From Pediococcus acidilactici (GTDB lineage: Bacteria > Bacillota > Bacilli > Lactobacillales > Lactobacillaceae): a stretch of DNA of 64,000 nt. Numbering within the stretch: position 1 is the stretch's first letter; every line of letters starts with the position of its first letter. The stretch is from contig CP103908.1 of the NCBI GenBank assembly GCA_024970065.1, positions 620,001 through 684,000 of the forward strand. Direction: 5' to 3'. The notes beneath the pieces were generated by a model, which saw only the letters and a program-made list of their open reading frames with translations, was not told the origin of the DNA and made no database searches. The position numbers were made by a program, and so were the translations under genes. Shown one piece after another: positions 9,768-62,533 of the stretch.

Positions 9768-9779
9768 GGGGGAATCATT

Positions 9780-10817
9780 ATTACAAGGAAAAACAAAATT
9801 GTCCTTGTCGTGATGATTTTGGCCGGATTGGTAATTTTTGGCTATTCGTTGCGTGGGGTTAATTTGCACCAAGTCTCGCATGATATTTTAAATCTAAATT
9901 TGGGCTGGCTCTTGGTCGCCCTCTTATGTATTATTTTGTATTTAGGCTTTGAAGCCGTAGCAACCAAAGTATTGGTAGAAAGCAATGGCGACCGACTGTC
10001 TTGGAAAGACGCAATTCGTATTCCGTTAATTGAACAGCTATTTAACGGGTTAACGCCATTTTCTTCCGGCGGGCAACCAGCACAATTGGTGGCCCTTATG
10101 CAAAGCGGGATTGAAGGTGGCCGTGCAAGCTCAGTTCTATTAATGAAGTTCGTCGTTTTTCAGACCATGGTTGTATTGAACTTTCTTTTCAGCCTATTGA
10201 TTGGGTTCCAATATTTGGAAGATAAGATTAAGTTTCTTTCTTGGTTCGTGTTATTTGGCTTTTTAATCCATTTAGCGGTAATTGTGGGGCTGTTATTAGT
10301 CATGTACTGGCACAACTTTACCAAAAAGATGGTTGATCTGATTTTTATACCTATTAAACGTTTTGCTAGACCTGAACGATATCTAAGGTGGAAGACCTCA
10401 ATTGATGCGAAGGTGGATACTTTCTATTTAGAGAGTGTCCGGATGAAGTCCCAATGGCGTTTATTGGCCAAAGTAGCTTTATTGACCTTCTTCCAGTTAC
10501 TGTTTTACTACCTAATCCCGTACTTCATTTTACTAGCGTTAGGGAAGACGCACGTGCATATAATTATGGTAACGTGCTTACACGTATTAATCTTCATGGT
10601 AATCTCGCTATTTCCCATTCCTGGAGGTGCAGGAGGTGCAGAGTACGGCTTTAGCGTCATCTTTGCCCAATTTGTAGGTAATAGTAGTAAGCTTGTCTTA
10701 GCAATGATGATCTGGCGATTGTTGACTTACTATTTTGGAATGTTTGCAGGGATGTTTGCGACAGTAACCAAACCTAACCGAATTAATCGAATAATGCCTA
10801 AAGAAACGAGCGAATAA
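9780..10817 (+). CDS. UPF0104/lysylphosphatidylglycerol-synthase-like membrane protein
   Basis: A multispan membrane protein of the family that includes the flippase domain of MprF (UPF0104, YbhN-like), with about eight hydrophobic segments and the conserved FPIPGGAGGAEYGF region near the end. In this operon it may flip or stabilise glycolipids; that is inference. The strong ribosome site AGGGGGGA (9766-9773) overlaps the previous stop and is well placed for ATT at 9780, giving a start like M-T-R-K-N-K-I before the first membrane helix (345 residues). Otherwise GTG at 9810 gives 335 residues but has no ribosome site. Confidence 0.75.
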   Translation: MTRKNKIVLVVMILAGLVIFGYSLRGVNLHQVSHDILNLNLGWLLVALLCIILYLGFEAVATKVLVESNGDRLSWKDAIRIPLIEQLFNGLTPFSSGGQPAQLVALMQSGIEGGRASSVLLMKFVVFQTMVVLNFLFSLLIGFQYLEDKIKFLSWFVLFGFLIHLAVIVGLLLVMYWHNFTKKMVDLIFIPIKRFARPERYLRWKTSIDAKVDTFYLESVRMKSQWRLLAKVALLTFFQLLFYYLIPYFILLALGKTHVHIIMVTCLHVLIFMVISLFPIPGGAGGAEYGFSVIFAQFVGNSSKLVLAMMIWRLLTYYFGMFAGMFATVTKPNRINRIMPKETSE

Positions 10818-10829
10818 GCTCGTTTTTTT
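10806..10829 (+). terminator. Terminator of the glycolipid operon
   Basis: ACGAGC and GCTCGT pair around GAATAA and are followed by seven T. The stop codon of the last gene is in the loop. Confidence 0.8.
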
Positions 10830-10848
10830 ATTTTTTTTAAAAAAAGTC

Positions 10849-10877
10849 TTGACCTGTTTTGGTAATCTTGATACTAT
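10849..10877 (+). promoter_or_regulatory. rRNA promoter P1
   Basis: TTGACC and TACTAT are separated by 17 bp. This is the most distal of three tandem promoters before the rRNA operon. Confidence 0.7.
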
Positions 10878-10950
10878 ATTTAAGTGCTCTTCGGTAAGGG
10901 CGCATCAAGGCATTGAGCGATTCGATAAAAATCTCGATTCAAAAAAGTTG

Positions 10951-10980
10951 TTGACAAGGTTTGATGCTTAATGTTAAGAT
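10951..10980 (+). promoter_or_regulatory. rRNA promoter P2
   Basis: TTGACA and TAAGAT are separated by 18 bp. The -35 box lies in the sequence AAAAAGTTGTTGACA, which recurs at P3. Confidence 0.7.
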
Positions 10981-11042
10981 ATATGAGCTGGTGTTTTTGA
11001 CCGGCGAGTGAGATTTCAAATAAAACAATTTAAAAAAAGTTG

Positions 11043-11071
11043 TTGACAATTGATTCTCATGATGATATATT
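11043..11071 (+). promoter_or_regulatory. rRNA promoter P3
   Basis: TTGACA and TATATT are separated by 17 bp. The leader from here to the 16S gene (about 185 nt) carries a TTTGAAAACTGAACAA stretch typical of lactobacillus rRNA leaders and no coding sequence. Confidence 0.7.
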
Positions 11072-11255
11072 TAAATAGTTGTCAAAAACGTTACAAACGT
11101 TGACCTGACAACGATGGTAGACCTTTGAAAACTGAACAAAATTTTGACAAACAATCGTGTGAGGACTCGCAAATCAATATGATTTAGTGAGAACAAACAT
11201 GCGAAGTCAATTCGCAAAAACAAACAATTAATGAGCTTGAAAAAGACTCATCATT

Positions 11256-36237: not shown

Positions 36238-37947
36238 CTAACGACGCGGGCGATAAACCCGGTAGCTAATTATGATTCCACTACTTAAAAGGACGAGTCC
36301 CCCGAATATCAACCAGTTAGCGGATGCTTCACTAGTTTGGGGCAACTGCTTCATTGAATTGGTGGCAGAAGACTTAGTAGTGGTCGTTTGCTGTGATTGC
36401 GCGCCGCTAGTTGGGTAGTTAGCGTTTAAGAACTTAAATTGGTGCTCTTTTTCAAAAATTTTGCCAATTGCGAGTAACGTGGCGTCACTACCTTGGCTAC
36501 CTTGTAATTGGATTCCTAATGGTAAACCAGACGGGCTCACGTAGGTTGGCAAACTGAGTGCGGGTTCACCAGCAAGGTTAGCTAATTGAGTAAACGGCGT
36601 CTTAGTTAAGCCATGGAGCCAAGAATCGTAAATCAATTGCATTTGTTGCTGGAACGGCAGATCCTTAATATTCATCATTTGATCAACGTACTTAGGAAGG
36701 TAGGCTGGATCGCTATTCAGTGGCGCAGTGGTAGCCGTTGTCGGAGTTAAGTAAATTGGGTACTGCTTGTGGAACGCGGTCATTTGGCGATGAACGAGGG
36801 CTAATTCCTTCATGAAAGTATTGGTAGTGGACTTAGGAGCTTTCTGACTTGCTTCGTAAAGGGCGTACGTCATCGGACTGACGAGTTTATCCTTAACGTC
36901 TTGGCTAGTCAGTGGTCGGCCTAATTTTTCACTAGCGTTAGCTCCGTCTTCAAGTGCGCCTAAATAGTAGGTCTGCATCATTTTCACTCCGTCAACCGGA
37001 CTATCTTTTTGGACAACTTTAAAACCTTGTTGCCGTAAGAAATTGACCGCTTGTTGAACCGCATTAATAGCGTCTTGGCTGACCGGGGTTCCTACCGGAG
37101 ATTTTAGGGAGTAGGCAATCGTCAAGTCTTTCAAATTCTTAGGAACTTTTTGTAGCATTTGGATTTGTTTGGGATTCGTGAGACCTTTTAAAAGGGTCTG
37201 GGTATCAGTAATATCCCGAGTATCCGCAAAGTTAACGACTGAAGGAGTGGTTGAATCTCCAATAATTAAGCCTTGGGTAGGTTTCAAACCAATTACACCT
37301 GACCAGGAAGCTGGAATTCGTAAAGAACCACCGGCATCATTTCCAGTCGCAATCGGAACTTCGTTAGCAGCCACACTTGCCGTTGCACCTCCGGAAGAGC
37401 CACCGGTATTAAATAGTAAGTTCCACGGGTTGTGGGCGACCCCGTTTAAATTAGAATTGGTGATGTTAATTAAGCCCATTTCTGGATAGTTGGTCTCACC
37501 AAGGATTACAAAGCCCATCTTTTGCAGTTTTTTAACGAACGCTTTGGTAGTAGGGTAAGTTTCTTTTTTTAAGAAAGGAAGGCCGTCAGTGTTGGGATAG
37601 CCTTGATATGCTTGACCCAGCCCCTTAATCAAGAGGGGGACCCCATAGAAAGGCTGTTGATGATTAGTTTTTTTCAAAGACTGTAGTTGTTTTAGTGCGT
37701 CGGAAGGATTTTGGTAAATGACGTTATTAAGACTGGGATTTTGTTGGTTAATTTTTTGATATGTATACTGGATTAGCGATTGTTCATCATACTGGTGATT
37801 TTTAAGCTGCTTCGTAATATTGGTGGCAGATTGACCATCTAAGTCGGCAGAGTTTGCTTGGGCCTTTACCGAAGTAGTGGTGAGGGAAAACAAAAATAAA
37901 ACGATAATGCTAATGGTGGTGTACCAGCGGGTGCGTGGTTTAGACAT
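36238..37947 (-). CDS. Cell-wall-anchored amidase-signature protein (LPxTG)
   Basis: A 569-residue secreted protein. It has a signal peptide (hydrophobic 11-26, cleavage probably after VKA), an amidase-signature domain and a sortase signal LPQTS followed by a hydrophobic stretch and RPRR. Expected catalytic residues are present: Lys108 in VPLLIKG, the Ser pair in TGGSSGG (184/185) and Ser208 in DAGGSLRIP. The reaction is hydrolysis of an amide bond, substrate unknown. Most family members are cytoplasmic, so wall anchoring is unusual. The linker before LPQTS is Thr/Ser-rich. The start follows AAAGGAGGAA. Confidence 0.9.
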   Translation of the reverse strand: MSKPRTRWYTTISIIVLFLFSLTTTSVKAQANSADLDGQSATNITKQLKNHQYDEQSLIQYTYQKINQQNPSLNNVIYQNPSDALKQLQSLKKTNHQQPFYGVPLLIKGLGQAYQGYPNTDGLPFLKKETYPTTKAFVKKLQKMGFVILGETNYPEMGLINITNSNLNGVAHNPWNLLFNTGGSSGGATASVAANEVPIATGNDAGGSLRIPASWSGVIGLKPTQGLIIGDSTTPSVVNFADTRDITDTQTLLKGLTNPKQIQMLQKVPKNLKDLTIAYSLKSPVGTPVSQDAINAVQQAVNFLRQQGFKVVQKDSPVDGVKMMQTYYLGALEDGANASEKLGRPLTSQDVKDKLVSPMTYALYEASQKAPKSTTNTFMKELALVHRQMTAFHKQYPIYLTPTTATTAPLNSDPAYLPKYVDQMMNIKDLPFQQQMQLIYDSWLHGLTKTPFTQLANLAGEPALSLPTYVSPSGLPLGIQLQGSQGSDATLLAIGKIFEKEHQFKFLNANYPTSGAQSQQTTTTKSSATNSMKQLPQTSEASANWLIFGGLVLLSSGIIISYRVYRPRR

Positions 37948-48154: not shown

Positions 48155-48967
48155 TTAACGTAACTTACGACTTAAAATTGCTTCTACGGTTTGTTGGTAA
48201 TGCTGCTTGTAGTCTGGGTCGTGCAAGAGCATGGTCGATAAGACGTCAATCACATAGACAATTCCTAGTTGAGAGTTAATAAAGCGGGTATTGTCCACAA
48301 AATCACTGTATTGAACAAATAATTTACAATCGCTCATGGATGCTAGGGGGCTATCATCAAACGCGGTAATCGCAATGACTTTAAGATTGTGCTCCTTAGC
48401 TAGCTTAGTGGCCTCGTTGACTTCTGCCGAGTTTCCGGAAACTGAAAGCACGATTACTAAGTCATCACTTTGCATAATACTGCTGGTAATGTACATTGTA
48501 TGGCTATCGGCCGGAGCAAATGCGTTAATTCCCATACGCAAGAGCCGCTGTGATAATTCTTGAGCGTTATATCCCGAGCTGCCCAAACCGAAAACGAAAA
48601 TTCGGGGGGCATTTTTGATCAATTGTACAGCTTCGTCTAAAGCAGATTGGTCAATTTTTTTCCACGTTCCGGTGATCATTTGGTTATAAAAGTTGGTTAC
48701 TTGATCAGGCAAGGGGGCATTGTTTACGTCCTCCGTAATTGTGGAGGTTGCCTCTGCCAAACCTAGTTTAAACTCACTAAAATCTTGGCACCCCATTTTC
48801 TTGACAAAACGGGTCACGGTAGCGGTACTAACTTCAGCTTTTTTGGCGAGAATGCCAATGTTCATCTTTTTTACTTGGGAAGGGTGTTGGATTACTTTTA
48901 ACGCAATTTTACGCTCTTGGCGCGATAACGAAGGATATTTTTGTTCCACCGTCTCAAGAATATTCAT
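48155..48967 (-). CDS. MurR/RpiR-family transcriptional regulator
   Basis: A 270-residue regulator with an N-terminal helix-turn-helix (VSTATVTRFVKKMGCQDFSEFK) and a C-terminal SIS domain (IFVFGLGSSGYNAQELSQRLL) that binds a sugar phosphate. Members of this family control amino-sugar and sialic acid genes, so it is a reasonable candidate regulator of the nan locus 9 kb away, but no direct link is visible. The start is ATG after AGGAGG; an upstream ATG lies on the ribosome site. It is transcribed away from the adhesin. Confidence 0.88.
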   Translation of the reverse strand: MNILETVEQKYPSLSRQERKIALKVIQHPSQVKKMNIGILAKKAEVSTATVTRFVKKMGCQDFSEFKLGLAEATSTITEDVNNAPLPDQVTNFYNQMITGTWKKIDQSALDEAVQLIKNAPRIFVFGLGSSGYNAQELSQRLLRMGINAFAPADSHTMYITSSIMQSDDLVIVLSVSGNSAEVNEATKLAKEHNLKVIAITAFDDSPLASMSDCKLFVQYSDFVDNTRFINSQLGIVYVIDVLSTMLLHDPDYKQHYQQTVEAILSRKLR

Positions 48968-48982
48968 TGAGAACCTCCTCAT

Positions 48983-49520
48983 GGATCTTTGCTAATAGCT
49001 TTAATTATACGCTTTTATTTCATGATGATAAAAGGCTAGTTCTTTATAGAAAACAGAAAAATGTTTTTGAAGATAACTATGACGAGTTTGCAAAAAGCTA
49101 ATATTTGTACCATTTTTTTATCTTTAATGAAATATTAATGATACGCATAAATATTTTTGGCGATTTTTAACCGAAGCCTATCTCTAGCGGGTAAAATTAA
49201 TACTCGAATTAAAATTATAAAATATAAACTACAAAAGGGGTACAAAAAAACTTATTTAATATTTTTACACTATATACAATTTAACGGGTGTAGTGTATAT
49301 TCTTAGTAAATATTTAAGTTTGCCATTTTAAATAGTATGTTTAGGAAAAACTAGTGAAAAGACTGGGTTGATAAGCGAAAACAAGTTACTGAAATTTTTT
49401 ATTTAGTTGGTGAATCGAGGTATGGATGACCCCAACCGTGTAAAAGATTTGGGCTATTAAAATGGAATACAAAGAGAGTAGGTTAAGCACTAGTTAAAAC
49501 AGCATTGAAAAGTCTTTTTG
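48983..49520. other. AT-rich region before the adhesin, no gene seen
   Basis: About 540 bp of AT-rich sequence with no credible coding region. It holds the divergent promoters of the RpiR and adhesin genes. Two 7-bp arms, TACACTA (49266-49272) and TAGTGTA (49291-49297), are spaced 18 bp apart and could be an operator. Confidence 0.4.
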
Positions 49521-49530
49521 GAGGAACGAA

Positions 49531-52500
49531 ATGAATAAGGAACGCAAAGAACATTACAAAATGTACAAAGATGGTAAGAAGTGGATTTTTTGCAGTTTAA
49601 CGGTTATAAGCGTGGCACTTGGCACAGGTTTGGTGAGTACTCATGCGGCAGCCGATACGGTAAATAAAACTACTACCGAAATGCCAAGCTAGAGTACTAG
49701 TGCAAAATCAACTACAACGAATGCGCCGGAAGCAAAGCCGACTCCAGTTGAGGATGCTACATCAGCGAAAAAACCGGTTGAACAGGCTAATGTAGTAAAT
49801 AATCCAGACCAGTCCGCAACCACGCAAACGGCAACAACCGCAAATGCTGATAATAAGCGTAATGTGAACGAAGGCACTACCGAAAATAAAAGTACGGCAA
49901 CAACTACTCCGAACTCGAATGCAGCTAAAACTACGGACAACGAACAAGCTGGCCAGTCGTACGTTAACGACAACCGGAATAAAACTAATAATGATGATAA
50001 TCCAATGGTTTCAACGACGGACCGTTCGACTACGGAAAATCATAAAGAAAACCCGTCGACTAAGGAAAATGAAAGTTCAACTTCAAAGGCGGTCGATTCA
50101 TCAAATGTTGAAAACGATTTAACAACTTCCGATGGGAAGGAAAAAAGTTCGACAAAAAATGACGATGCTAAGAATGTAAAACAATCAAGCGACGTTACCA
50201 AGACTAAAACACGGGTAAAAAGTCAAACCCCAAGTGGCCAATTTGGGACAAGTACTTGGTATATCGACGAAAATGGGGTACTGCATTTCAGTGCCGGAAC
50301 CTTTGCGGATACGCAGAGTGTTACCAGTTTTAACCAAAATCCATGGTTCAATTATCAACGGCTAATTAAGTCGATTGTTTTCGATGGAAAAGTGGTTGCT
50401 GGAAGCAATTGTAGAGCGCTTTTTAATGAGCTAACTAAATTACAAACCGTAGAAAATGCGCAGAATTTTGACGTGAGCAAAGTCGAAAACATGAATTACA
50501 TGTTTGAAGGGGATAGCGCGCTAGAAAAAATTGACGTCCATAATTGGGATACTTCGCGGGTTACGAACATGAGTGCAATGTTTAAAGGTTGTACGGAATT
50601 AGTTACTCTAGACGTCTCTAACTGGGATACATCACAAGTAACGGATTTGTCGTCAATGTTTGCTATGTTGAGTGGTGATGGCAAAGTATCCAAGTTAAAG
50701 AATTTAGATGTATCCAATTGGAACACCTCTAAGGTAACTAGCATGAAGGGTGTATTCTATAGATGCGCTTCATTGCAAAGTCTTAATCTTGTTGGCTGGA
50801 ACACCGCAAACGTAACCGATATGTCGACTTTGTTTTATGGTTGTAGCGGATTGCAAGAGTTAAACACTTCTGGTTGGAATACGTCAAAAGTGACCAACAT
50901 GGAAAGAATGTTTTACCTTGTGGGAGTTGAGCGATTAGACATCTCTAGCTTTGATATGACTAAAGTGCGGAATTCAACGAAAATGTTAAATGAGATGAGT
51001 AACCTACGCGTTATTATCATTGGCTCAAAAAATCGCCTTATCGATGCTGATTTATCAGAACCCAATTTTCCCGGAACTCGTAATAAGTGGGTAGCGGTAA
51101 ATGGGGGAACTGAAAAGGACCCGCACGGAAACACGCTTTATACATCTCATAATCTTGATTTTAAAGGACCTTCTTCACCGGATACCTACGTTATTTCAGA
51201 ACAAGTAATTATTGATGGCCACGATAGTACCATCATTGCAGGGCCAAATAGTAAATGGAGCCCAGCGGATAACTTCGACGAAGCATCGGATGGGACTGGG
51301 GCACCGGTTGACCTTAAAGACATTACGGTTACGGGCACGGTGGATCCGCAAACACCGGGTGATTATGATATCACGTATAGCTATACGGATGCGTACGGTC
51401 GCCATGGTAGTAAAACGATTACGGTCCACGTGGTTAAGTCTGAAGCAAGTATAAATGGTCATGACAGTACATTAATTGCTGGTCCAAATAGTAAGTGGAC
51501 TGCAGCGGATAATTTTGACGAGGCAACCGACGCTGAAGGTAACCCGGTTGACTTAAAAAACGTCACGGTCCAAGGCAAAGTAGATCCTCATACCCCAGGA
51601 GACTATGAAGTTACCTACAGTTATACAGACGTTTCAGGTAACATAGTTAGTAAAACAATTACGGCCCACGTAATTGCCAGTCAAGCTAGCGTAGATGGTC
51701 ATGATAGTACCCTAATTGCAGGACCCAACAGTAAGTGGAATTCAGCAGACAACTTTGACGGGGCAAAGGATGCCGAAGGCGATCCGGTTGACTTGAAGGA
51801 CGTCACGGTCAAAGGTAATGTGAACTCCCAAGTGCCGGGAGACTACGAAGTAACCTACAGTTATACGGATGCGTATGGCAACACAGTTAACAAGACGATT
51901 ACGGTCCACGTGATTGCTAGCCAAGTTAATATAGACGGTCATGATAGTACGCTAATTGCGGGGCCCAACAGTAAGTGGACCGCAGCAGACAACTTTGATG
52001 GAGCAACCGATGCCGAAGGTAACCCGGTTGACTTGAAGGACGTTACGGTCAAAGGTAATGTGAACCCCCAAGCGCCGGGAGACTACGAAGTAACCTACAG
52101 TTATACGGATGCGTATGGCAACACAGTTAGCAAGACGATTACGGTTCACGTAAAAGCCAGCCAAGTTAACGTAAATGGTCATGATAGTACGCTAATTGCT
52201 GGTCCAAATAGCAAATGGACCGCAGCAGACAACTTTGATGGAGCAACGGATGCCGAAGGAAATCCGGTTGACTTGAAGGACGTCACGGTCAAAGGTAATG
52301 TGAACCCCCAAGTCCCTGGTGACTACGAAGTAACTTACAGTTATACGGATGCGTATGGCAACACAGTTAGCAAGACGATTACGGTTCACGTAAAAGCCAG
52401 CCAAGCTAACGTAGACGGTCATGATAGTACGGTGATTGCTGGACCAAATAGCAAATGGACCGCCGCGGATAATTTCGATGGAGCAAAGGATGCCGAAGGT

Positions 52501-55500
52501 AACCCAGTTGACTTAAAAGACGTTACGGTCAAAGGTAGCGTGAACCCGCAAGTGCCGGGAGACTACGAAGTAACCTACAGTTATACGGATGCGTATGGCA
52601 ACACAGTTAGCAAGACGATTACGGTTCACGTGATTAAGTCTGAAGCAAGTATAAATGGTCATGACAGTACTTTAATCGCTGGACCAAATAGCAAATGGAC
52701 TGCCGCAGATAATTTCGACGGAGCAAAGGATGCCGAAGGTAACCCAGTTGACATAAAAGACGTTACGGTCAAAGGTAATGTGGACCCGCAAACACCTGGA
52801 GATTACGAAGTAACCTACAGTTACACGGATGCTTATGGCAACGTGGCTAGTAAAACAGTCATTGTACACGTAAACGAAAGTCAAGCGAGCATAGACGCTC
52901 ACGATAGTACCATCATTGCAGGACCAAATAGTAAGTGGAATCCCGCAGACAATTTTGATGGAGCGACCAATGAATTTAAAGGTGGGGCTTCTCTTTCTGA
53001 TGTTGTGGTAAAGGGAACCGTAAATCCGCAAGTTCCAGGTGATTATGAAATTACCTATAGTTATACCGATGCTTGTGGTAATGAAGTTAGCAAGATGGTG
53101 ACGGTCCACGTGATTGCTAGCCAAGTTAGCGTAGACGGTCATGATAGTACGGTGATTGCTGGACCAGACAGTAAGTGGAATGCCGCGGATAATTTCGATG
53201 GAGCAACGGATGCCGAAGGAAATCCGGTTGACTTAAAGGACGTCACGGTTAAAGGTAGTGTAGATCCACAAACACCTGGAGATTACGAGATAACATACAG
53301 TTATACAGATGCTTATGGCAACACAGTTAGCAAGACGGTGACGGTCCACGTAATTACCAGCCAAGCTAGTGTAGATGGCCATGATAGTACGTTAATTGCG
53401 GGACCAGACAGTAAGTGGAATCCTGCGGATAACTTCGATGGAGCAACCGATGCTGAAAGTAATCCGGTTGACTTGAAGGATGTCACGGTTAAAGGCAACG
53501 TGAACCCGCAAGTTCCTGGCGATTATGAAGTAACCTACAGTTACACGGATGCATATGGCAACACAGTTAGCAAGACGATTACGGTTCACGTAATTGCTAG
53601 CCAAGTTAATGTAGATGGTCATGATAGTACGTTGATTGCAGGACCAAATAGTAAGTGGGATCCAGCAGACAACTTTGACGGGGCAACGGATGCCGAAGGA
53701 AATTCGGTTGACTTGAAGGACGTTACGGTCAAAGGTAGCGTAAATTCGCAGGTGCCCGGCGATTACGAAATTACGTATAGTTATACGGATGCATATGGCA
53801 ATGTAGTTAGCAAGACGATTACGGTGCACGTGATCGCCAGCCAAGTTAATATAGACGGTCATGATAGTACGCTAATTGCGGGACCAGACAGTAAATGGAA
53901 CCCCGCAGACAACTTTGATGGAGCAACGGATGCCGAAGGAAATCCGGTTGACTTAAAAGACGTTACGGTCAAAGGTAGCGTGAACCCGCAAGTTCCTGGA
54001 GACTACGAAGTAACCTACAGCTACACCGATATGTACGGCAACACAGTTAGCAAAACGATTACGGTGCACGTAAACGCCAGCCAAGCTAGTGTAGACAGTC
54101 ATGATAGTACATTGATTGCGGGACCAGACAGTAAATGGAACCCCGCAGATAATTTTAATGGAGCAACGGATGCCGCAGGAAATTCGGTTGACTTAAAGGA
54201 CGTAACGGTTAAAGGTAATGTAGATCCACAAACACCTGGAGACTACGAAGTAACCTACAGTTACACCGATATGTACGGCAACACAGTCAGCAAGACGATT
54301 ACGGTGCACGTAAACGCCAGCCAAGTTAACGTAGACGGTCATGATAGTACGGTGATTGCCGGACCAGACAGTAAGTGGAATCCTACGGATAATTTCGATG
54401 GAGCAACGGATGCCGAAGGTAACCCGGTTGACTTGAAGGACGTCACGGTCAAAGGCAACGTGAACCCGCAAGTGCCGGGAAACTATGAGGTAACCTATAG
54501 TTACACGGATGCTTACGGCAACACAGTCAGCAAGACGATTACGGTCCACGTGGTTAAGTCTGAAGCAAGTATAAATGGTCATGACAGTACTTTAATCGCT
54601 GGTCCAAATAGCAAATGGACTGCCTCGGATAATTTCGATGGAGCAACGGATGCCGAAGGTAACCCGGTTGACTTGAAGGACGTTACGGTCAAAGGTAGCG
54701 TGAACCCGCAAGTCCCTGGAGACTACGAAGTAACTTACAGCTACACGGATGCTTACGGCAACACAATTAACAAGACGATTACGATCCACGTGATCGCCAG
54801 TCAAGTTAACGTAGGCGGTCATGATAGTACATTAATTGCCGGACCAGACAGTAAATGGAATCCAGCAGACAACTTTGATGGAGCAACGGATGCCGAAGGT
54901 AACCCGGTTGACTTGAAGGACGTCACGGTCAAAGGCAGCGTGAACCCGCAAGTCCCTGGAGACTACGAAGTAACTTACAGTTACACCGATGTGTACGGTA
55001 ACACGGTTAGCAAGACGATTACGGTCCACGTGATTGCTAGCCAAGTTAACGTAGATGGTCATGATAGTACGGTGATTGCCGGACCAGACAGTAAATGGAA
55101 TCCAGCAGACAACTTTGATGGAGCAACGGATGCCGAAGGTAACCCGGTTGACTTGAAGGACGTTACGGTCAAAGGTAGCGTGAACCCGCAAGTCCCTGGA
55201 GACTACGAAGTAACTTACAGCTACACGGATGCTTACGGTAACACAGTTAACAAGACGATTACGGTGCACGTAAACGCCAGCCAAGCTAGTGTAGACGGTC
55301 ATGATAGTACCCTAATCGCTGGTCCAAATAGCAAATGGACTGCAGCGGATAATTTTGACGGAGCAAGGGATGCCGAAGGTAACCCAGTTGACTTAAAAGA
55401 CGTTACGGTCAAAGGTAGCGTGAACCCGCAAGTCCCTGGAGACTACGAAGTAACTTACAGTTACACGGATGCGTACGGCAACACAGTTAGCAAGACGGTG

Positions 55501-57117
55501 ACGGTGCACGTAAAAGCCAGCCAAGCTAGTGTAGACGGTCATGATAGTACATTAATTGCCGGACCAGACAGTAAGTGGAATCCAGCAGACAACTTTGATG
55601 GAGCAACCGATACTGAAGGAAATCCGGTTGACTTGAAGGACGTTACGGTCAAAGGTAGCGTGAACCCGCAAGTCCCTGGAGACTACGAGGTAACCTACAG
55701 TTACACGGATGCTTACGGTAACACAGTTAGCAAGACGGTGACGGTGCACGTAAACGCCAGCCAAGCTAGTGTAGACGATCATGATAGTACATTAATTGCC
55801 GGACCAGACAGTAAGTGGAATCCTGCGGATAATTTCGATGGAGCAACGGATGCCGAAGGTAACCCAATTGACTTGAAGGACGTTACGGTCAAAGGCAATG
55901 TAGATCCACAAACACCTGGAGACTACGAAGTAACTTACAGCTACACGGATGCTTACGGCAACACAGTTAACAAGACGATTACGGTCCACGTAACTGCTAG
56001 TCAAGAAACGGTGGACGGCCACGATATAACCGTTGTTGCGGGTCCCAATAGTACGTGGGATCCAGCAGAAGATTTCGACGGAGCGACGGATGCTGCAGGA
56101 CATTCGGTTGACTTAAAAGATGTTACGGTCAAAGGCAATGTAGATCCACAAACACCTGGAGATTACGAAGTAACTTACAGTTACACCGATGCGTACGGCA
56201 ACACAGTCAGCAAGACGGTGACGGTCCACGTAACTGCTAGTCAAGAAACGGTGGACGGCCACGATACTACCATTATTGCGGGTCCCAATAGTACGTGGAA
56301 TCCGTTAGAAGATTTTGATGGCGCAAAAGACGCGGAAGGTAATCCAATTAGCCTAAAGGACGTGACGGTCAAAGGTAATGTAGATCCGCACACACCAGGC
56401 GATTATGAAGTAACCTACAGTTATACTGATGCGTATGGCAACCAAGTTGATAAGACCGTAGTTGTTCACGTGGTTGACAGTCAAGCAAGTGTTGCGGCTC
56501 ATGATAGTACGATAGTTGGCGATGCTAATGCGAGCTGGAAGGCGGAAGACAATTTTGACGGGGCAACGGATGCAAATGGTAATTTAGTTGATTTTAGTGA
56601 GGTAACGGTTGAAGGGAAAGTAAATCCAAACGTAGCCGGTGATTACGTAGTAACGTACACTTATACAGATGCTTATGGCAACGTGGTAAGCAAACAGGTC
56701 GTGGTCCACGTGATTGCTGGAAAGGGATCTGATAACGATCAACCAACGCCGGACACGCCAAAATCAAATGATGATCCAGAAGACAATACTTCAAGTGATT
56801 CTTCAAGTAATGCTTCTAACGATACTGCGGATAACAATTCAGAAACTGATGATAATTTTGTTCCAACGCCAAACGTTCCGGAAACGCCAGCAAATCCAGC
56901 TGTTAAACAAGGACGAAATAATAATAAGCCTACAGAAACTAAATTTTTACCAAAGAGGTCGGTTGCTCAAAGTGAACCGGCAAATAAAACGACTGCTCGA
57001 AAATTGCCTCAAACAGGTGAGGTAAAGGATGAACTCAGCCTAGTAGGCATCTTAGGCTTATTAGTTGGTTTGATGGGCTTAGCATTTGGAATTAAAAGGA
57101 AAAAGCCCCGGGGATAA
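49531..57117 (+). pseudogene. Giant LPxTG repeat adhesin interrupted by an in-frame amber codon
   Basis: From ATG at 49531 (ribosome site GGAGG) the frame encodes a KxYKxGKxW-type signal peptide (KMYKDGKKWIF, then a hydrophobic core ending THAAADT). It meets TAG at 49690-49692 (codon 54), then stays open for 2475 codons to the stop at 57115. The remainder has a Thr/Ser/Asn-rich leader, about six BspA-type DUF285 repeats (NMSAMFKGC, VSNWDTSQVT; residues about 311-489), 23 Ig-like repeats of 80 residues, a Pro/Asp/Ser linker and LPQTG (about 2492) with a membrane helix and basic tail. Without the stop it would be a wall-bound adhesin of 2528 residues. As written, only 53 residues are made. A downstream GTG at 49864 leaves a 2417-residue frame but lacks both ribosome site and signal peptide. 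A single C-to-T change (CAG to TAG) or a sequencing error would explain it. Confidence 0.85.
51205..56724 (+). repeat. 23 tandem repeats of exactly 240 bp inside the adhesin
   Basis: Each unit encodes 80 residues with the pattern HDSTLIAGPxSKW, DNFDGATDAEGNPVDLKDV, PGDYEVTYSYTDAYGN and SKTITVHV, an Ig-like fold as in DUF5011/Big_3-type domains. The period never changes, even in unit 8, where the middle is replaced by NEFKGGASLSDV. Units differ in blocks (PNSKW or PDSKW; NPQVPGDY or DPQTPGDY), which looks like mosaic exchange. The last three units are the most divergent. Boundaries depend on where a unit is taken to start. Confidence 0.9.
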
Positions 57118-57131
57118 CTCGTGGGTAGACA

Positions 57132-57179
57132 AAAAATGATGAATCGTGGTCTTACAAAATCACGGTTCATCATTTTTTA
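57132..57179 (+). terminator. Terminator of the adhesin gene
   Basis: AAAAATGATGAA pairs with TTCATCATTTTT, with an inner CGTG/CACG, followed by T residues. Confidence 0.8.
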
Positions 57180-57182
57180 TTA

Positions 57183-57212
57183 AAAAAAGAGGCGGGGAAT
57201 CCCGTCTCTTTT
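57183..57212 (-). terminator. Terminator of nanE
   Basis: On the minus strand AAGAGACGGG pairs with CCCGCCTCTT, followed by seven T. Confidence 0.75.
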
Positions 57213-57241
57213 AACGTTAAAATAATCTTCTTTAAAACTAA

Positions 57242-57931
57242 TTAATTGATTGCATCTACAAAACGACTCGCAATTTCTAACGGACGAGTAATGGCGCCAC
57301 CGACCACTACCGAATGACAACCTAATTCAATGCATCGTTTTAGTTTTGCTGGAGTGTCGATTTTTCCTTCAGCAACCACCGGATGGTGCACCTTTTGTAA
57401 GAGTTCTTTGAGATAGGCAAAATCGTCGTCGGCAATGTTCAAACCCTTTGAAGCCGGGGTATAACCGCGCATCGTGGTCCCAATAATATCAAAACCTAAT
57501 TCATCAGCCAGCAGGGCGTTTTCCATAATGTCAGTATCGGCCATCAAAAGGGTGTTTGGAAATTCAGCCCGAAATTGTTTGACGATGTCAGCAAGCTTTT
57601 CGCCGTGTGGACGGGGTTGTCCAGTGACTTGGCAAGCGACAACTTCAACCCCAGTAGCCGCAACTGCCCGCATTTCTTTCATGGTGGGGGTAATAAATAC
57701 TGGAGAATCTGGATAGTCTGTCTTGGCAATCCCGATCATTGGCAAACCAGTTTCATCCTGGATTGCTTGGATATCCACTACCGAATTTGCTCGGATACCG
57801 GCGGCACCAGCCATCTTAGCAGCTCGCGCCATCCGTGCCATAATAAAGGAACTATGGAGCGGTTCTGCTGGTAACGCTTGACAAGAAACAATTAACTGTC
57901 CTTTGACAGCATCTAAAAATCTATTTTTCAT
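57242..57931 (-). CDS. nanE: N-acetylmannosamine-6-phosphate 2-epimerase
   Basis: NanE converts ManNAc-6-P to GlcNAc-6-P, the last dedicated step of sialic acid breakdown. The 229-residue TIM barrel has Lys70 in GIAKTDYPDSPVFITPT and Glu188 in VVAEGKIDTP, the expected catalytic residues, and the phosphate site VVVGGAITRP. It is transcribed divergently from the kinase, symporter and nanA genes, which supply its substrate. Regulatory sites for both directions lie in 57932-58234. Confidence 0.95.
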   Translation of the reverse strand: MKNRFLDAVKGQLIVSCQALPAEPLHSSFIMARMARAAKMAGAAGIRANSVVDIQAIQDETGLPMIGIAKTDYPDSPVFITPTMKEMRAVAATGVEVVACQVTGQPRPHGEKLADIVKQFRAEFPNTLLMADTDIMENALLADELGFDIIGTTMRGYTPASKGLNIADDDFAYLKELLQKVHHPVVAEGKIDTPAKLKRCIELGCHSVVVGGAITRPLEIASRFVDAIN

Positions 57932-58018
57932 TATACTGACACTTCACTTCTATCAAATTTAATTTCCTAAAATATACCGCTAATTATAAATGATGGGGTT
58001 TGGAATAAAAATTAATTT

Positions 58019-58082
58019 GTAATAGTTAATTGCTAATTCAACCACCGCAGTAAATATAGCGCGAGTTAAAAAATATTGCAAT
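58019..58082 (+). promoter_or_regulatory. Repeated leader element A (sialic acid locus)
   Basis: The blocks TGTAATAGTTA, AATTCAAC, CCGCA, GCGAGTT and ATTGCAAT occur in the same order as in element B (59883-59973). AAC-CGC can pair with GCG-A-GTT, and ATTGC with the terminal GCAAT. This copy has a short loop and no terminator. It lies between nanE and the kinase gene. Function is unknown. Confidence 0.5.
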
Positions 58083-58145
58083 AGATAAATGTGATAATTG
58101 TTTTCAAAAAGAGCTATGAATGCTGTTGTTATGGTAATTAAAAAT

Positions 58146-58172
58146 ATTTTCACTTTTTTTAATTGTGAAAAT
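58146..58172 (+). promoter_or_regulatory. Candidate operator before the ROK kinase gene
   Basis: ATTTTCAC and GTGAAAAT are perfect inverted arms separated by 11 bp of A/T, ending 62 bp before the start codon. The form suits a dimeric regulator such as an RpiR protein; the identity is inference. Confidence 0.5.
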
Positions 58173-58234
58173 TATAAACGGGTGGTAATATGAAATCGTT
58201 ATCAAGAGTGTTGAATAAATTGGAGGAACCCGAG

Positions 58235-59098
58235 ATGGACAAAAAATTTTTAGCATTTGATGTGGGGGGAACCACTATTAAATATGCGGTACTTGACGAA
58301 CGCTTAAATTTTGCAGATTCAGGTAAAGTTAATACAGAACAAAATCGGGACGGGCATATTTTAAAAACGCTACTACAAGTTAGTAAAGCAATTCAGAATC
58401 GCGTCTCGCTTGCAGGAATTGGCGTTAGTACAGCGGGGATTGTTGGTAAGGATGGCGGTATTCAATATGCGGGACCAACCATTCCTAACTACATTGGCAC
58501 TCCTATCAGAGCAAGCCTGGCTGCCCAAACTGATTTACCAGTCAGCGTAGTTAATGACGTTGATGCCGCTCTTTTAGGAGAAGTCTTTACCGGAAACTTA
58601 GCGGATCATGATGTCTACTGTATGGCGTTAGGTACGGGAATTGGTGGGGCACATTATCGTAACGGAAAAATTATTAGCGGAGCCCATGGGCAGGGCAATT
58701 CAATTGGTTATACGTTATTTGATCCACAGACTAACACGAATTATGAACAAAGGGCTTCGACCTTGGTTTTAGAACGGCAATTAGCAGATAAAGGAATAAC
58801 GGTAATTGAGGCTTTTGAAAAAGCTAAGCAGGGGCAGGTACCTTATGTATCAATTATTGAACGGTGGGCTAAAGAAGTGGCGAGAGGAATTGCGGAAGTA
58901 ATCGTCTTATTTGACCCGGAAGAAATTATAATTGGTGGCGCAGTTTCTGCGCAAGGACAATACTTGATTGATTTACTTAACGCTCAATTACCAACGTTGT
59001 TGCCAACGGATTTCAACCAGACCACGTTAAAAATTGCACAACGAGGGAACCAAGCACAACTAATTGGAGCAGTTGTTCCATTTTTTAGAGACAAATAA
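58235..59098 (+). CDS. nanK: ROK-family kinase, probable N-acetylmannosamine kinase
   Basis: A 287-residue ROK kinase expected to phosphorylate ManNAc with ATP. It has the ATP loop FDVGGTTIKYAVLDE (6-20), the catalytic Asp in VVNDVDAALLGE, and GTGIGGAHYRNG. The zinc-binding CxCGxxGCxE motif of typical ROK proteins is missing; instead a GNSIGYTLFDPQTNTNYEQ stretch occurs, as in a subset of Firmicute sugar kinases. Its place between nanE and nanA supports ManNAc as substrate. The start follows TGGAGG; an in-frame ATG 15 codons earlier lacks a ribosome site. Confidence 0.85.
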   Translation: MDKKFLAFDVGGTTIKYAVLDERLNFADSGKVNTEQNRDGHILKTLLQVSKAIQNRVSLAGIGVSTAGIVGKDGGIQYAGPTIPNYIGTPIRASLAAQTDLPVSVVNDVDAALLGEVFTGNLADHDVYCMALGTGIGGAHYRNGKIISGAHGQGNSIGYTLFDPQTNTNYEQRASTLVLERQLADKGITVIEAFEKAKQGQVPYVSIIERWAKEVARGIAEVIVLFDPEEIIIGGAVSAQGQYLIDLLNAQLPTLLPTDFNQTTLKIAQRGNQAQLIGAVVPFFRDK

Positions 59099-59109
59099 GG
59101 AGAAAACAA

Positions 59110-59841
59110 ATGAAAAAAGTATCGATTAATACCGCAGTATTTTTGAACCAACTTGAAAATGGAAATTCCCAATTCGAATGTTTAAAACAACTGGTGGGTA
59201 AACCAATTGACGCGATTGAAGTTCGGGGCGAATTTTTTAAAGAAGATGGCCGTGATCAGGAGCTAGCTGCGATTCAGCGGCTATGTGAAGAAAATCATTG
59301 GCAATTTTACTATTCAATCCCGGAAGCGTTATTTACGGAAGGAAAGTTAAACGAAAATATTTTTGATTACATAGCGTTGGCAAATGAATTTCAAATTCAA
59401 GGGTTAAAAATCAGTTTAGGAAATTGTCAGAATACGGCGGCTCCAAGCTTGGCGAAGCTGCAAAAAGCTTTGCGCGCCTATTCAGGAGTGTTAACGGTAG
59501 AAAATCAACCAAATCAGGATGGGCAGTTAAATGTTTTTGAAGCCAACCTGATTAAATTGTTGGCGCTAGTTCCTGAACTGGGTTATACGTTTGATTCGGG
59601 AAACTGGTATTGGATAAAGGAGACTCCGCATCTGGCATTCGATTCATTGAAAAAGTGGATTACTGTGTTTCATCTGAAGGACGTTGCCAATTTAACGACG
59701 GTTCGGTTGGGGGAAGGGACCACCGATTGGCAGCCTATGATACAAGCATTAACTCCTGAAGTGCCGGTATTTCTGGAGTACGCAATTGCTAATGAAGAAG
59801 AATTAGATGAAGAAATCCAAAAAGTAAATTTAATTCTTTGA
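59110..59841 (+). CDS. Sugar-phosphate isomerase/epimerase-like TIM-barrel protein
   Basis: A 243-residue protein of the xylose isomerase-like (AP endonuclease 2) TIM-barrel superfamily. Likely metal ligands are seen in LTVENQPNQ, TFDSGNW, FHLKDV and FLEYAI. It follows the kinase by 11 bp and so is part of the sialic acid locus, but no step of the standard pathway requires it. It could process a sialic acid variant or anomer; that is speculation. The stop overlaps a cre-like site of the next transcript. Confidence 0.75.
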   Translation: MKKVSINTAVFLNQLENGNSQFECLKQLVGKPIDAIEVRGEFFKEDGRDQELAAIQRLCEENHWQFYYSIPEALFTEGKLNENIFDYIALANEFQIQGLKISLGNCQNTAAPSLAKLQKALRAYSGVLTVENQPNQDGQLNVFEANLIKLLALVPELGYTFDSGNWYWIKETPHLAFDSLKKWITVFHLKDVANLTTVRLGEGTTDWQPMIQALTPEVPVFLEYAIANEEELDEEIQKVNLIL

Positions 59842-59852
59842 AAGGGTTTACA
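59839..59852 (+). promoter_or_regulatory. cre-like site of the symporter transcript
   Basis: TGAAAGGGTTTACA matches the CcpA consensus TGWAANCGNTNWCA except that GG replaces CG. It begins at the stop codon of the previous gene and covers the -35 box. Confidence 0.5.
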
Positions 59853-59875
59853 TTTAACGGGAAACAGTTTATAAT
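59847..59875 (+). promoter_or_regulatory. Predicted sigma-A promoter of the symporter-nanA transcript
   Basis: TTTACA and a consensus TATAAT are separated by 17 bp. The leader is about 210 nt and contains element B. Confidence 0.75.
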
Positions 59876-59882
59876 CACTACC

Positions 59883-59973
59883 TGTAATAGTTATTAATGC
59901 GAATTCAACTGCCGCAAAGGTTTCACACTACCACATCATGTAGTGCGAGTTTTTGTGGCATTTTTTATTGCAA
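59883..59973 (+). promoter_or_regulatory. Repeated leader element B with attenuator-like hairpins
   Basis: TGCCGCAA (59910-59917) can pair with TTGTGGCA (59953-59960) followed by TTTTTT, an intrinsic terminator. Alternatively AACTGCCGCA can pair with TGCGAGTT (59944-59951), which would prevent it. Between them CACTAC/GTAGTG forms a perfect hairpin (59926-59945) that shares two bases with the anti-terminator arm. The flanking blocks match element A. It sits in the leader of the symporter gene, so conditional read-through is plausible. Confidence 0.6.
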
Positions 59974-60092
59974 TTAGAAAAGATTGGTCGTTAATTCTGG
60001 AGGGGACCAGACTTACTGACTAATGGATGCCGCTACTTAAACTACGTGAAAATTTTTAATTTGGAATTCGTAGAAAGTAGGTACTGCGTAAT

Positions 60093-61601
60093 ATGGTTAA
60101 ACAAGGATTCGGTGTTTTAAATTGGCTGGTTTTAATTGCTTATTTAATCATTATGTTAGTAATTGGTTTAAGTTTCAGTAAGAAAAGTTCAAAGAATTCA
60201 GAAGAGTTTTTCAAGGCAAGTACCAGCAACGTGCCGGCATGGGCGGTGGGATTTAGTATTTTCGCGACAACTTTAAGTGCGATTACCTACATGTCAACGC
60301 CAGAAAAGTCATTTTTGACCAACTGGGCTTATGCTTTTGGAAATTTAGCGATTTTTTTGATCACTCCGGTATTAATTAAGTATTATATTCCATTCTTTTC
60401 AAAGTTGCGGGTGACCACGGCTTACGAATATTTGGAATTTCGGTTTAACCCGTTTTTACGGGTGTTTAGCAGCATTTTGTTTGTGTTATTCCATATTGGA
60501 CGGATTGCAATCGTAATTTATTTACCGACCGTGGCATTGCAATCCATTATCAACATTAACCCGTACCTGATCGCCTCTTTGATCACCATCCTGTGTATCG
60601 TTTATACATACCATGGCGGAATGGAAGGGGTAATTTGGAGCGACGTGATTCAAGGAATTCTCCTACTAGTGGGCGCGGTTTTAATTATTTTCTTCGCGGT
60701 TCATGGAACCCACGGGGGACTGCAAACCGTTGCGCAAGATGCCGTCAATAAAGGGAAAATCCTAACTAAGGCTGATTTTGTATGGAGCGTTACTAAGTCG
60801 ACAGTGCCAATCATCCTGTTGGGTCAGATCTTCAACACTTTGTACCAATATACGGCCAGTCAAGACGTAGTTCAGCGGTACACTACTTCGACTGATAATA
60901 AGCACATTGCTAAGTCAATCTGGACTAACGCATTGCTATCGTTAATCACCATTCCACTCTTCTACGGAATGGGAACCGTGATTTACAGTTTTTACCAACA
61001 CGGAGGCAGTTTACCGACCGGATTTAATACTTCCGCATTGGTGCCATATTTTGTATTAACTGAAATTCCAGCGGGAGTTGCTGGATTAATTATTGCGGCG
61101 ATTTTTGCGGCTTCGCAAGCCACGATTGCTTCCAGTTTGAATAGTACTGCGGCTTGTCTGGTAACCGATATCCAAAAACGGTTCATGAAAGATAAAAGTG
61201 ACCGAATGAGTATGCGGATCACACGGCTAAGTATCCTAATTTGTGGAATTTTTGGGTTGTTAGTAACGCTAGTACTGATTAAGCTTCATAGCTCGGACAT
61301 GATCGATACTTACTTATCGCTCTTCGGTCTCTTCGGCGTACCAATTGCCGGAATCTTTGCTCTAGGTATCGTCAGTCAACGGGCAAACGGCTTTGGTGCA
61401 ACCCTTGGCATGATTGTCACTACGGCAATTTGCTACTTTATTCAAACCCATGGAATCAACGCCCTCTTTGTTAGTGTAGTTGGTTTCCTAGGTGCGATGA
61501 TTTTAGGATATCTTTTCAGTTTTCTTAAACCGGGACATCAACATGACATTACCGGCTTGACGTTTAAAACGATTGATCAAAAAGTTAATCTCAAAAATTA
61601 A
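60093..61601 (+). CDS. Sodium:solute symporter, probable sialic acid transporter
   Basis: A 502-residue SSS-family transporter with about 13 membrane helices. Family features include the early segment GFSIFATTLSAITYMSTPEKSF and the AGLIIAAIFAASQATIASSLNSTAACLVTDI region of helix 8 that forms the sodium site. Its position between the kinase and nanA points to import of Neu5Ac or ManNAc. The leader carries element B and a cre-like site. nanA follows after 14 bp. Confidence 0.88.
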   Translation: MVKQGFGVLNWLVLIAYLIIMLVIGLSFSKKSSKNSEEFFKASTSNVPAWAVGFSIFATTLSAITYMSTPEKSFLTNWAYAFGNLAIFLITPVLIKYYIPFFSKLRVTTAYEYLEFRFNPFLRVFSSILFVLFHIGRIAIVIYLPTVALQSIININPYLIASLITILCIVYTYHGGMEGVIWSDVIQGILLLVGAVLIIFFAVHGTHGGLQTVAQDAVNKGKILTKADFVWSVTKSTVPIILLGQIFNTLYQYTASQDVVQRYTTSTDNKHIAKSIWTNALLSLITIPLFYGMGTVIYSFYQHGGSLPTGFNTSALVPYFVLTEIPAGVAGLIIAAIFAASQATIASSLNSTAACLVTDIQKRFMKDKSDRMSMRITRLSILICGIFGLLVTLVLIKLHSSDMIDTYLSLFGLFGVPIAGIFALGIVSQRANGFGATLGMIVTTAICYFIQTHGINALFVSVVGFLGAMILGYLFSFLKPGHQHDITGLTFKTIDQKVNLKN

Positions 61602-61615
61602 AAGGAGTAATTAAA

Positions 61616-62533
61616 ATGACAAAAAATCTTGATAAATATAAAGGAATCATTCCAGCATTTTACGCATGTTATGACGATGAAGGCAACGTTAGCCCAGAAC
61701 GGGTGCAAAAGCTTGCTAAATATTATTTGGCAAAGGGAGTGAAGGGACTTTACGTGGGCGGTTCTTCGGGAGAATGTATTTATCAAACGGTGGAAGAACG
61801 GAAGCTAGTTTTGGAAAACGTAATGGAAGCAGTTGGCGGGCAAATGACGATCATTGCCCACGTTGCCGCTCCTTCAACCCGGGATAGCATTGAGTTGGCT
61901 AAACATGCGGAACAATTGGGCGTTGATGCGTTGGCAGCTATTCCACCAATTTACTTTGTACTACCAGAACCCGCAATCGAAGCGTACTGGACAAGTATTA
62001 TGGAGGCAACCAACCTTGATTTCATCATTTATAACATTCCCCAAACAACTGGATACGCACTGTCTGAGAACCTATTTAAGAAGATGATGGCTAAGGAACA
62101 GGTAATCGGGGTTAAGAATTCTTCCATGCCGGTAATGGACATCAACATGTGGAAACTACGTGCTCCAAAAGAAAATATCATTTTTAACGGCCCTGATGAA
62201 CAATTCGTTGGCGGTCGTGTAATGGGCGCAGATGCTGGAATTGGCGGAACGTACGGCGTTTATCCAGAGTTACTTTTAGAAGCTGACCGCTGTGTACGAG
62301 AAGGCGAATTAGATAAGGCGTTGGAAATTCAGTTATGCGTCAATGATTTAATTTCACAATTAACTTCATTTAAAGGAAATCTTTACGACGTAATGAAGTT
62401 AATTCTGGCGCAAAGAGGGGTTGCTGTGGGCCGCGCCCGTTATCCATTACCACACGTTGAAGAAAGCGAAATGGATCGAGTTACCCAAGTACGGGAAAAT
62501 ATTGATAAGGCGATTGAAAAATACGTTGGCTAG
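61616..62533 (+). CDS. nanA: N-acetylneuraminate lyase
   Basis: NanA cleaves Neu5Ac to ManNAc and pyruvate through a Schiff base. The 305-residue DHDPS-family barrel has Lys167 in VIGVKNSS, Tyr139 in IIYNIPQTTGY and the pyruvate-carboxylate loop GGSSGE (48-53), where many lyases have GSTGE. The sugar-binding GPDEQFVGG region supports NanA over dihydrodipicolinate synthase, as does the locus. It starts at ATG after AAAAGGAG. Confidence 0.94.
   Translation: MTKNLDKYKGIIPAFYACYDDEGNVSPERVQKLAKYYLAKGVKGLYVGGSSGECIYQTVEERKLVLENVMEAVGGQMTIIAHVAAPSTRDSIELAKHAEQLGVDALAAIPPIYFVLPEPAIEAYWTSIMEATNLDFIIYNIPQTTGYALSENLFKKMMAKEQVIGVKNSSMPVMDINMWKLRAPKENIIFNGPDEQFVGGRVMGADAGIGGTYGVYPELLLEADRCVREGELDKALEIQLCVNDLISQLTSFKGNLYDVMKLILAQRGVAVGRARYPLPHVEESEMDRVTQVRENIDKAIEKYVG

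What the first reader, a model, noticed from the sequence alone, without database searches (positions are those of the whole stretch)
49681..49700. In-frame amber codon cuts the signal peptide from a 2.5-thousand-codon adhesin
The frame from ATG 49531 reaches TAG at 49690, then remains open for 2475 codons through LPQTG. A long undamaged frame after a stop suggests a very recent mutation, a sequencing error, conditional read-through or off/on switching. The change needed is one base (TAG to CAG). No ribosome site or signal peptide supports a start downstream.
Basis: seen in the sequence. Interest (0 to 1): 0.7.

Follow-up and report, generated by a model that had tools for sequence, protein, structure and literature searches.

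The report
Giant adhesin silenced by stop codon
In a lactic acid bacterium, one stop codon just after the export signal cuts off an otherwise undamaged, 2,474-codon surface-adhesin frame, so the strain likely makes no adhesin from it; single breaks of this kind recur in related genes of sister species, which makes this an ordinary and probably recent gene loss.

Summary
Confirmed. The frame from ATG 49531 (GGAGG 6 nt upstream) runs 53 codons, meets TAG at 49690-49692, then stays open for 2,474 codons to TAA 57115. The first piece is a KxYKxGKxW signal peptide; the rest is a BspA-type leucine-rich region, 23 Ig-like repeats of exactly 80 residues and an LPQTG anchor.

Best reading: a lineage-specific adhesin gene in a sialic-acid (nan) cluster, missing at that place in the three sister genomes examined, recently inactivated by one nonsense mutation. 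The repeats show strong past constraint (median dN/dS 0.095). A neutral frame this long would be expected to gain another stop within about 1.2-1.6% divergence (95% bound); the flanks differ 9-13% from the nearest sister.

Read-through has no support: none of the 58 tRNAs found reads UAG, release factor 1 is present, UAG ends ordinary ORFs, the 108 nt after the stop fold unremarkably. No slippage tract suggests switching. A base-call error is not excluded without reads.

It is not unique: of 61 KxYKxGKxW leaders in 12 congeneric genomes, 10 genes carry one lesion with a long frame beyond it, a second one in this genome included. A published survey (PMC3017865) already reports many such pseudogenes.

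The parts
49520..49524 (+). Shine-Dalgarno GGAGG, 6 nt before ATG 49531
49531..49692 (+). 53-codon leader ORF (KxYKxGKxW signal peptide) ending in TAG
49690..49692 (+). in-frame amber stop codon between signal peptide and mature adhesin
49693..57117 (+). open adhesin frame after the stop, 2,474 sense codons
49864..57117 (+). public gene model (P0008, 2,417 aa, GTG start), without the signal peptide
50239..51030 (+). BspA/PARCEL-type leucine-rich region (DUF285, TIGR02167); limits approximate
51217..56736 (+). 23 tandem 80-residue Ig-like repeats (Big_3, 240-bp units)
57004..57018 (+). LPQTG sortase motif; PF00746 match at 56983-57105
49019..57238 (+). stretch without DNA alignment to the nan locus of sister G004, which has 235 bp here
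48155..48982 (-). RpiR-type regulator with SIS domain, upstream neighbour
57242..57931 (-). NanE-type N-acetylmannosamine-6-phosphate epimerase
58190..62533 (+). rest of nan-like cluster: ROK kinase, TIM-barrel protein, SSF transporter, DHDPS/NanA-type lyase

Best explanation
This is a lineage-specific, sortase-anchored BspA/Ig-repeat adhesin gene whose frame is interrupted by a single UAG right after its signal peptide, and it is likely a recently inactivated gene that makes only the 53-residue leader and no adhesin. Shown: the stop, the intact frame on both sides, a good ribosome site before the leader and none at the 12 start codons tested after the stop, the absence of this gene from the nan cluster of the three sister genomes examined, no UAG-reading tRNA among the 58 found, RF1 present. 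Inferred: ribosomes initiate at ATG 49531 and terminate at UAG with RF1; the leader is exported or degraded; the 7.4-kb remainder stays untranslated; the mutation is recent and tolerated because the adhesin is dispensable where this strain lives. Related adhesin genes in sister species carry other single nonsense or frameshift lesions, so repeated loss of dispensable adhesins would explain this one without special machinery.
For: Frame anatomy. Past constraint: median dN/dS 0.095 over the 183 usable of 253 pairs of the 23 repeats. 779 single changes would create a stop in the 2,474 codons; absence of any gives a 95% neutral bound of 0.0115-0.0155 substitutions per site, against 87% and 91% DNA identity of the two flanks to sister G004. 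No adhesin at the nan site of G004, G005 and G007. The N-terminal 275 residues after the stop found only the protein itself and one weak hit (E 8e-6) among 4,806 candidates. All 58 tRNAs found were typed by ARAGORN, none with a CUA anticodon; prfA over cut-off; TAG ends 21 of 74 ORFs of at least 200 aa in the window and four other stretches, some of which may be spurious. Recurrence: 10 of 61 KxYKxGKxW leader genes in 12 congeneric genomes have one lesion with a long frame beyond (leaders listed).
Against: No reads and no second strain, so an assembly error is not excluded. No transcript or protein data. The neutral-age bound fails if the frame is still translated or if repeat homogenisation removes stops. 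Gain rather than repeated loss of the gene is parsimony only, and three further sisters with a more distant NanE (G002, G008, G010) were not examined. 51 of 61 leaders were not counted as broken; some of those were seen over a short stretch only or end at a contig edge.
Confidence: 0.77

Rival explanations
1. Sequencing or assembly error: the strain carries a sense codon and makes the full adhesin.
For: A single substitution in an otherwise undamaged frame is what an error would look like; no second copy or strain with this gene was found.
Against: Single-contig genome rated 99.97% complete. 44 of 50 sister ORFs with a hit of at least 75% identity are full length and open in this genome; of the 6 others 2 run off a stretch end, 1 lies in the tRNA array, 1 has its single stop at the end of the own gene, and 2 are short ORFs of 125 and 169 aa. 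A second KxYKxGKxW gene of this genome also has a stop at its leader, which fits inactivation but could also be a second error.
Confidence: 0.12
2. Leaky or conditional read-through of UAG gives a low dose of full-length adhesin.
For: The downstream frame is intact to the anchor.
Against: No suppressor tRNA among the 58 found, RF1 present, no unusual fold in the 108 nt after the stop (z -0.51), UAG used as a stop elsewhere.
Confidence: 0.06
3. Reversible on/off variation by mutation at the leader: silent and active variants coexist and are selected in turn.
For: Of 10 single-lesion genes in the genus, 6 have the in-frame stop within about 70 codons of the leader; under a uniform model over about 530 codons P is 0.0036 leaving out the index case, a post hoc figure.
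Against: No homopolymer over 4 within 30 bases of the stop. The only repeat pair that spans the promoter region (78% over 18 nt) is the facing ribosome-site and ATG signals of the two divergent genes. The lesions are of different kinds in different genes.
Confidence: 0.05

Closest known systems
KxYKxGKxW-signal BspA/Ig-repeat surface proteins of Lactobacillaceae (e.g. Lactiplantibacillus plantarum, Levilactobacillus bambusae, Lactiplantibacillus xiangfangensis homologs)
   Same: Same leader family, DUF285 region and Big_3 repeats; 34-55% identity to the query part in these examples
   Different: In 61 of 67 named Lactiplantibacillus entries picked by hand, nearly all L. plantarum, the leader is joined to the protein; here a stop separates them
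Mucus-binding and other large surface-protein pseudogenes of lactic acid bacteria (LAB-Secretome, PMC3017865, passages read)
   Same: Large LPXTG adhesin gene broken by a small lesion; that paper already asks whether such genes are truly dead
   Different: Those were in most cases frameshifts, with MUB proteins singled out; here a nonsense codon in a BspA/Ig-repeat protein
scl1 null allele of M3-type group A Streptococcus (PMC5005324, passages read)
   Same: Nonsense codon in an LPXTG-type adhesin frame, kept in a natural lineage
   Different: There the lesion is conserved within one serotype and a truncated secreted protein is proposed; here the stop precedes all mature domains and only one genome is known

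Membership tests
KxYKxGKxW-signal, sortase-anchored BspA/Ig-repeat adhesin | KxYKxGKxW signal peptide | tested here: met
   PF19258 64.5 bits, TIGR03715 34.6 bits
KxYKxGKxW-signal, sortase-anchored BspA/Ig-repeat adhesin | BspA/PARCEL leucine-rich region plus Ig-like repeats | tested here: met
   DUF285 143 bits, TIGR02167 169 bits, Big_3 882 bits with 23 stretches
KxYKxGKxW-signal, sortase-anchored BspA/Ig-repeat adhesin | LPXTG anchor | tested here: met
   PF00746 22.5 bits, cut-off 20; TIGR01167 19.4 bits, cut-off 15.9
KxYKxGKxW-signal, sortase-anchored BspA/Ig-repeat adhesin | one continuous frame from signal peptide to anchor | tested here: not met
   TAG at 49690; hence filed as an interrupted copy, not a working member
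Recoded or read-through gene | UAG-reading tRNA or missing RF1 | tested here: not met
Recoded or read-through gene | stimulatory RNA structure after the stop | tested here: not met
   z -0.51 for the 108 nt after the stop; longer stretches not folded
Recoded or read-through gene | stop conserved in orthologs | not testable with these tools
   no ortholog found
Phase-variable (contingency) gene | simple-sequence tract or invertible element at the switch point | tested here: not met
Phase-variable (contingency) gene | mixed on and off cells in a population | not testable with these tools
   no reads held
Recent pseudogene by nonsense | single lesion, otherwise intact frame with past constraint | tested here: met
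Recent pseudogene by nonsense | no protein made | not testable with these tools
   needs proteomics

The most novel reading that the evidence does not exclude
Leader-proximal single hits are the way this genus switches its giant adhesins off and, by reversion or recombination, on again: the untouched 2,474-codon frame is a stored, silent adhesin kept as part of a repertoire of which only some members are displayed at a time.
Probability: 0.06. Interest if true: 0.6.

Novelty: new member of a known kind. Interest (0 to 1): 0.24.

Why it matters
It adds a clean nonsense case, with a bound on its age, to an open question put in the LAB-Secretome paper (PMC3017865, passages): are the many broken adhesin genes of lactobacilli dead or conditionally used? 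The census gives a rate for one genus (10 of 61 leader genes with one lesion) and a testable hint that lesions sit near the leader. It also warns that gene callers turn such genes into leaderless proteins (here a 2,417-aa model from GTG 49864) that look cytoplasmic.

Tried and rejected
Internal translation start: the 12 in-frame start codons up to 50,700 lack a ribosome site, and the product would have no KxYKxGKxW leader. Genetic-code change: RF1 present and UAG used as a stop. Suppressor tRNA: none among the 58 found (one search scored 150 of 160 candidates; a tRNA below its cut-off would be missed). Slippage: no tract at the site. Invertible promoter: four weak inverted repeat pairs (73-86% complementary); the one across the promoter region is the two facing gene-start signals. 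Plasmid origin of the locus: no plasmid match for 49000-50400 or 39000-63900. Strain comparison: no second strain found; the protein cluster of P0008 lists 2 member sequences on 1 contig, which I could not open further; the single genome-contig scan gave 17 loci, 16 of them from other bacterial groups and 1 Companilactobacillus match to the repeats, and did not return this genome. Species name: not found; rRNA searches of plasmids and phages gave relatives at 78-91% identity in the rows shown. P0126 and P0127, relatives with 64-65% identity in the repeats, also begin without a leader; P0126 was sought in 251 genomes and its own genome was not among them, so the cause is unknown. Leader-proximal clustering in the wider family: the list was cut and was not used as a census; three short frames from it proved to be contig ends.

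Full report
What is there. The frame from ATG 49531, with GGAGG six bases upstream, has 53 sense codons, meets TAG at 49690-49692 and stays open for 2,474 codons to TAA at 57115-57117. The first piece is a KxYKxGKxW signal peptide (PF19258, 64.5 bits; TIGR03715, 34.6 bits). The second holds a BspA/PARCEL-type leucine-rich region, 23 Ig-like repeats and an LPXTG anchor. The repeats are 23 units of exactly 80 residues from 51217, seen as a 240-bp array. LPQTG is at 57004-57018.

Could something start after the stop? The 12 in-frame ATG, GTG or TTG codons between the stop and 50,700 have at most 3 nt of Shine-Dalgarno match; later ones were not scored. The public model, 2,417 aa from GTG 49864 (P0008), would lack any signal peptide of this kind.

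Could the stop be read through? The 58 tRNAs found in the genome were all typed with ARAGORN: 23 in the window, 26 more and 9; none has a CUA anticodon. RF1 is present over its cut-off. In the window and four further stretches TAG ends 21 of 74 ORFs of at least 200 aa, some of them possibly spurious. The 108 nt after the stop fold no better than shuffles (z -0.51). There is no homopolymer longer than 4 within 30 bases of the stop. Of four weak inverted repeat pairs the one across the promoter region is the two facing gene-start signals.

Was the gene functional and how old is the stop? Among the repeats median dN/dS is 0.095 (183 usable of 253 pairs), so the protein was long under constraint. 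779 of 22,266 single changes in the downstream frame would make a stop; with none present, neutral divergence since loss of constraint is below 0.0115-0.0155 substitutions per site at 95%, by transition bias. The two flanks are 91% and 87% identical to sister G004 over 5.0 and 5.3 kb. The stop therefore likely arose well after that split. The bound assumes neutrality and no homogenisation of repeats.

Where did the gene come from? It lies in a sialic-acid (nan) type cluster: RpiR regulator, then NanE, ROK kinase, SSF transporter and a NanA-type lyase. In G004 the same cluster is present with 235 bp in place of the 8.2 kb; in G007 and G005 the two flanking genes are likewise close, with about 0.14 and 1.1 kb between their matches, and no DNA match to the adhesin. 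Three further sisters with a NanE of 47-49% identity (G002, G008, G010) were not examined. Of the 12 genomes of the genus only this one and G003, with one 376-aa frame, match relative P0126 at E 1e-40; two candidates per genome were scored. Gain in this lineage is the simplest reading but repeated loss is not excluded.

Is the assembly error-prone? Of 98 sister ORFs in the G004 stretches taken, 50 had a hit of at least 75% identity in this genome's stretches and 44 were full length and open. The other 6: 2 run off a stretch end, 1 lies in the tRNA array, 1 (415 aa) has its only stop at the end of the own gene, and 2 short ORFs (125 and 169 aa) have stops or poor cover and may not be genes. In the other direction 44 of 51 own ORFs with a hit were full length and open in G004; of the 7 others 4 reach a stretch end, 2 have one stop in the sister and 1 is split between two frames. 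Neither broken adhesin of this genome is in that comparison, the window one having no sister copy and the second being under 75% identical. This argues against a general error problem; it does not prove this base.

Is it unusual? One search found 6 KxYKxGKxW leaders in this genome. A second one, at G000:C1:1528957-1529073, has a TAA directly after the ATG that carries the ribosome site, then an open frame to an LPQTN anchor; its copy in sister G004, 66.7% identical, has a sense codon there. One search listed 61 leaders in the 12 genomes of the genus, 60 over the family cut-off. One search went through the 61: 10 have a single lesion followed by a long open frame, 4 by nonsense (two in G000, one each in G010 and G001) and 6 by frameshift (G008, G002, G009, G010, G001, G007). 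The G007 case, at codon 507, may be the natural end of the gene followed by another. Two rows with an in-frame ORF starting 12-13 codons after the stop (G000:C1:475566, G001:C1:6522) were taken as a natural end plus a neighbour and not counted. One leader (G006:C18) runs off its contig and was misplaced by the script, so it tells nothing. The remaining ones have no such lesion in the part seen; several end at a contig edge or close without a continuing frame, and 17 were seen for only about 110-130 codons, their longer open frames (862-3,621 aa) being taken. Of the 10 lesions 6 have the stop within about 70 codons of the leader start. Under a uniform model over about 530 codons P is 0.0008, or 0.0036 without the index case; this is post hoc and the genomes are partly drafts.

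In other species. Relatives include many Lactiplantibacillus plantarum proteins; of 67 named Lactiplantibacillus entries picked by hand from that list, nearly all L. plantarum, 61 begin with the leader and 6 do not; why the 6 lack it was not determined. In one search two genomes of another genus (G121, G146) show stops inside related frames. PMC3017865 (passages) reports nearly 400 secretome pseudogenes in lactic acid bacteria and calls it striking that many large mucus-binding genes are pseudogenes, leaving open whether they are dead. PMC5005324 (passages) describes a natural nonsense allele of an LPXTG-type adhesin. PMC11577788 (passages) describes adhesin mutants of Limosilactobacillus reuteri made with internal stop codons. 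PMC3584209 (passages) describes another giant KxYKxGKxW surface protein, of Lactobacillus rhamnosus. The listings of searches, each cut to 20 rows or fewer, showed no paper on this gene.

Verdict. The most likely mechanism is a recent nonsense inactivation of a dispensable, lineage-specific adhesin. Read-through and switching have no positive support at this site beyond the post hoc clustering in the genus. The species could not be named from the tools; what is shown is a single 1,995,187-bp contig, and that it belongs to Lactobacillaceae is inferred from the named relatives of its proteins.

Noticed in passing
G000:C1:1528957-1529073 (-), L079 about 9044-11080: A second KxYKxGKxW, LPQTN-anchored surface protein in this genome has a stop codon directly after its ribosome-site ATG; the sister species has a sense codon there. 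Restart at an internal ATG 8 codons on is possible.
   Followed up: yes
48155-62533: The adhesin gene sits between the regulator and nanE of a sialic-acid catabolism type cluster; the association of a giant adhesin with nan genes may reflect a mucosal lifestyle.
   Followed up: partly
36238-37947 (-): An amidase-family protein carrying an LPXTG anchor (PF01425 plus PF00746), perhaps an unusual wall-anchored enzyme.
   Followed up: no
L131 (G010:C1:1790500-1796500): A sister species has TGA inside the hydrophobic core of a KxYKxGKxW leader, then about 990 open codons.
   Followed up: yes
P0126 and P0127: Relatives with 64-65% identity in the repeats, on contigs of about 1.93 Mb, begin inside the leucine-rich region and inside the repeats, without a leader.
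   Followed up: partly
L148 (G121), L149 (G146): Related Ig-repeat frames in another genus contain internal TAG or TAA stops.
   Followed up: no
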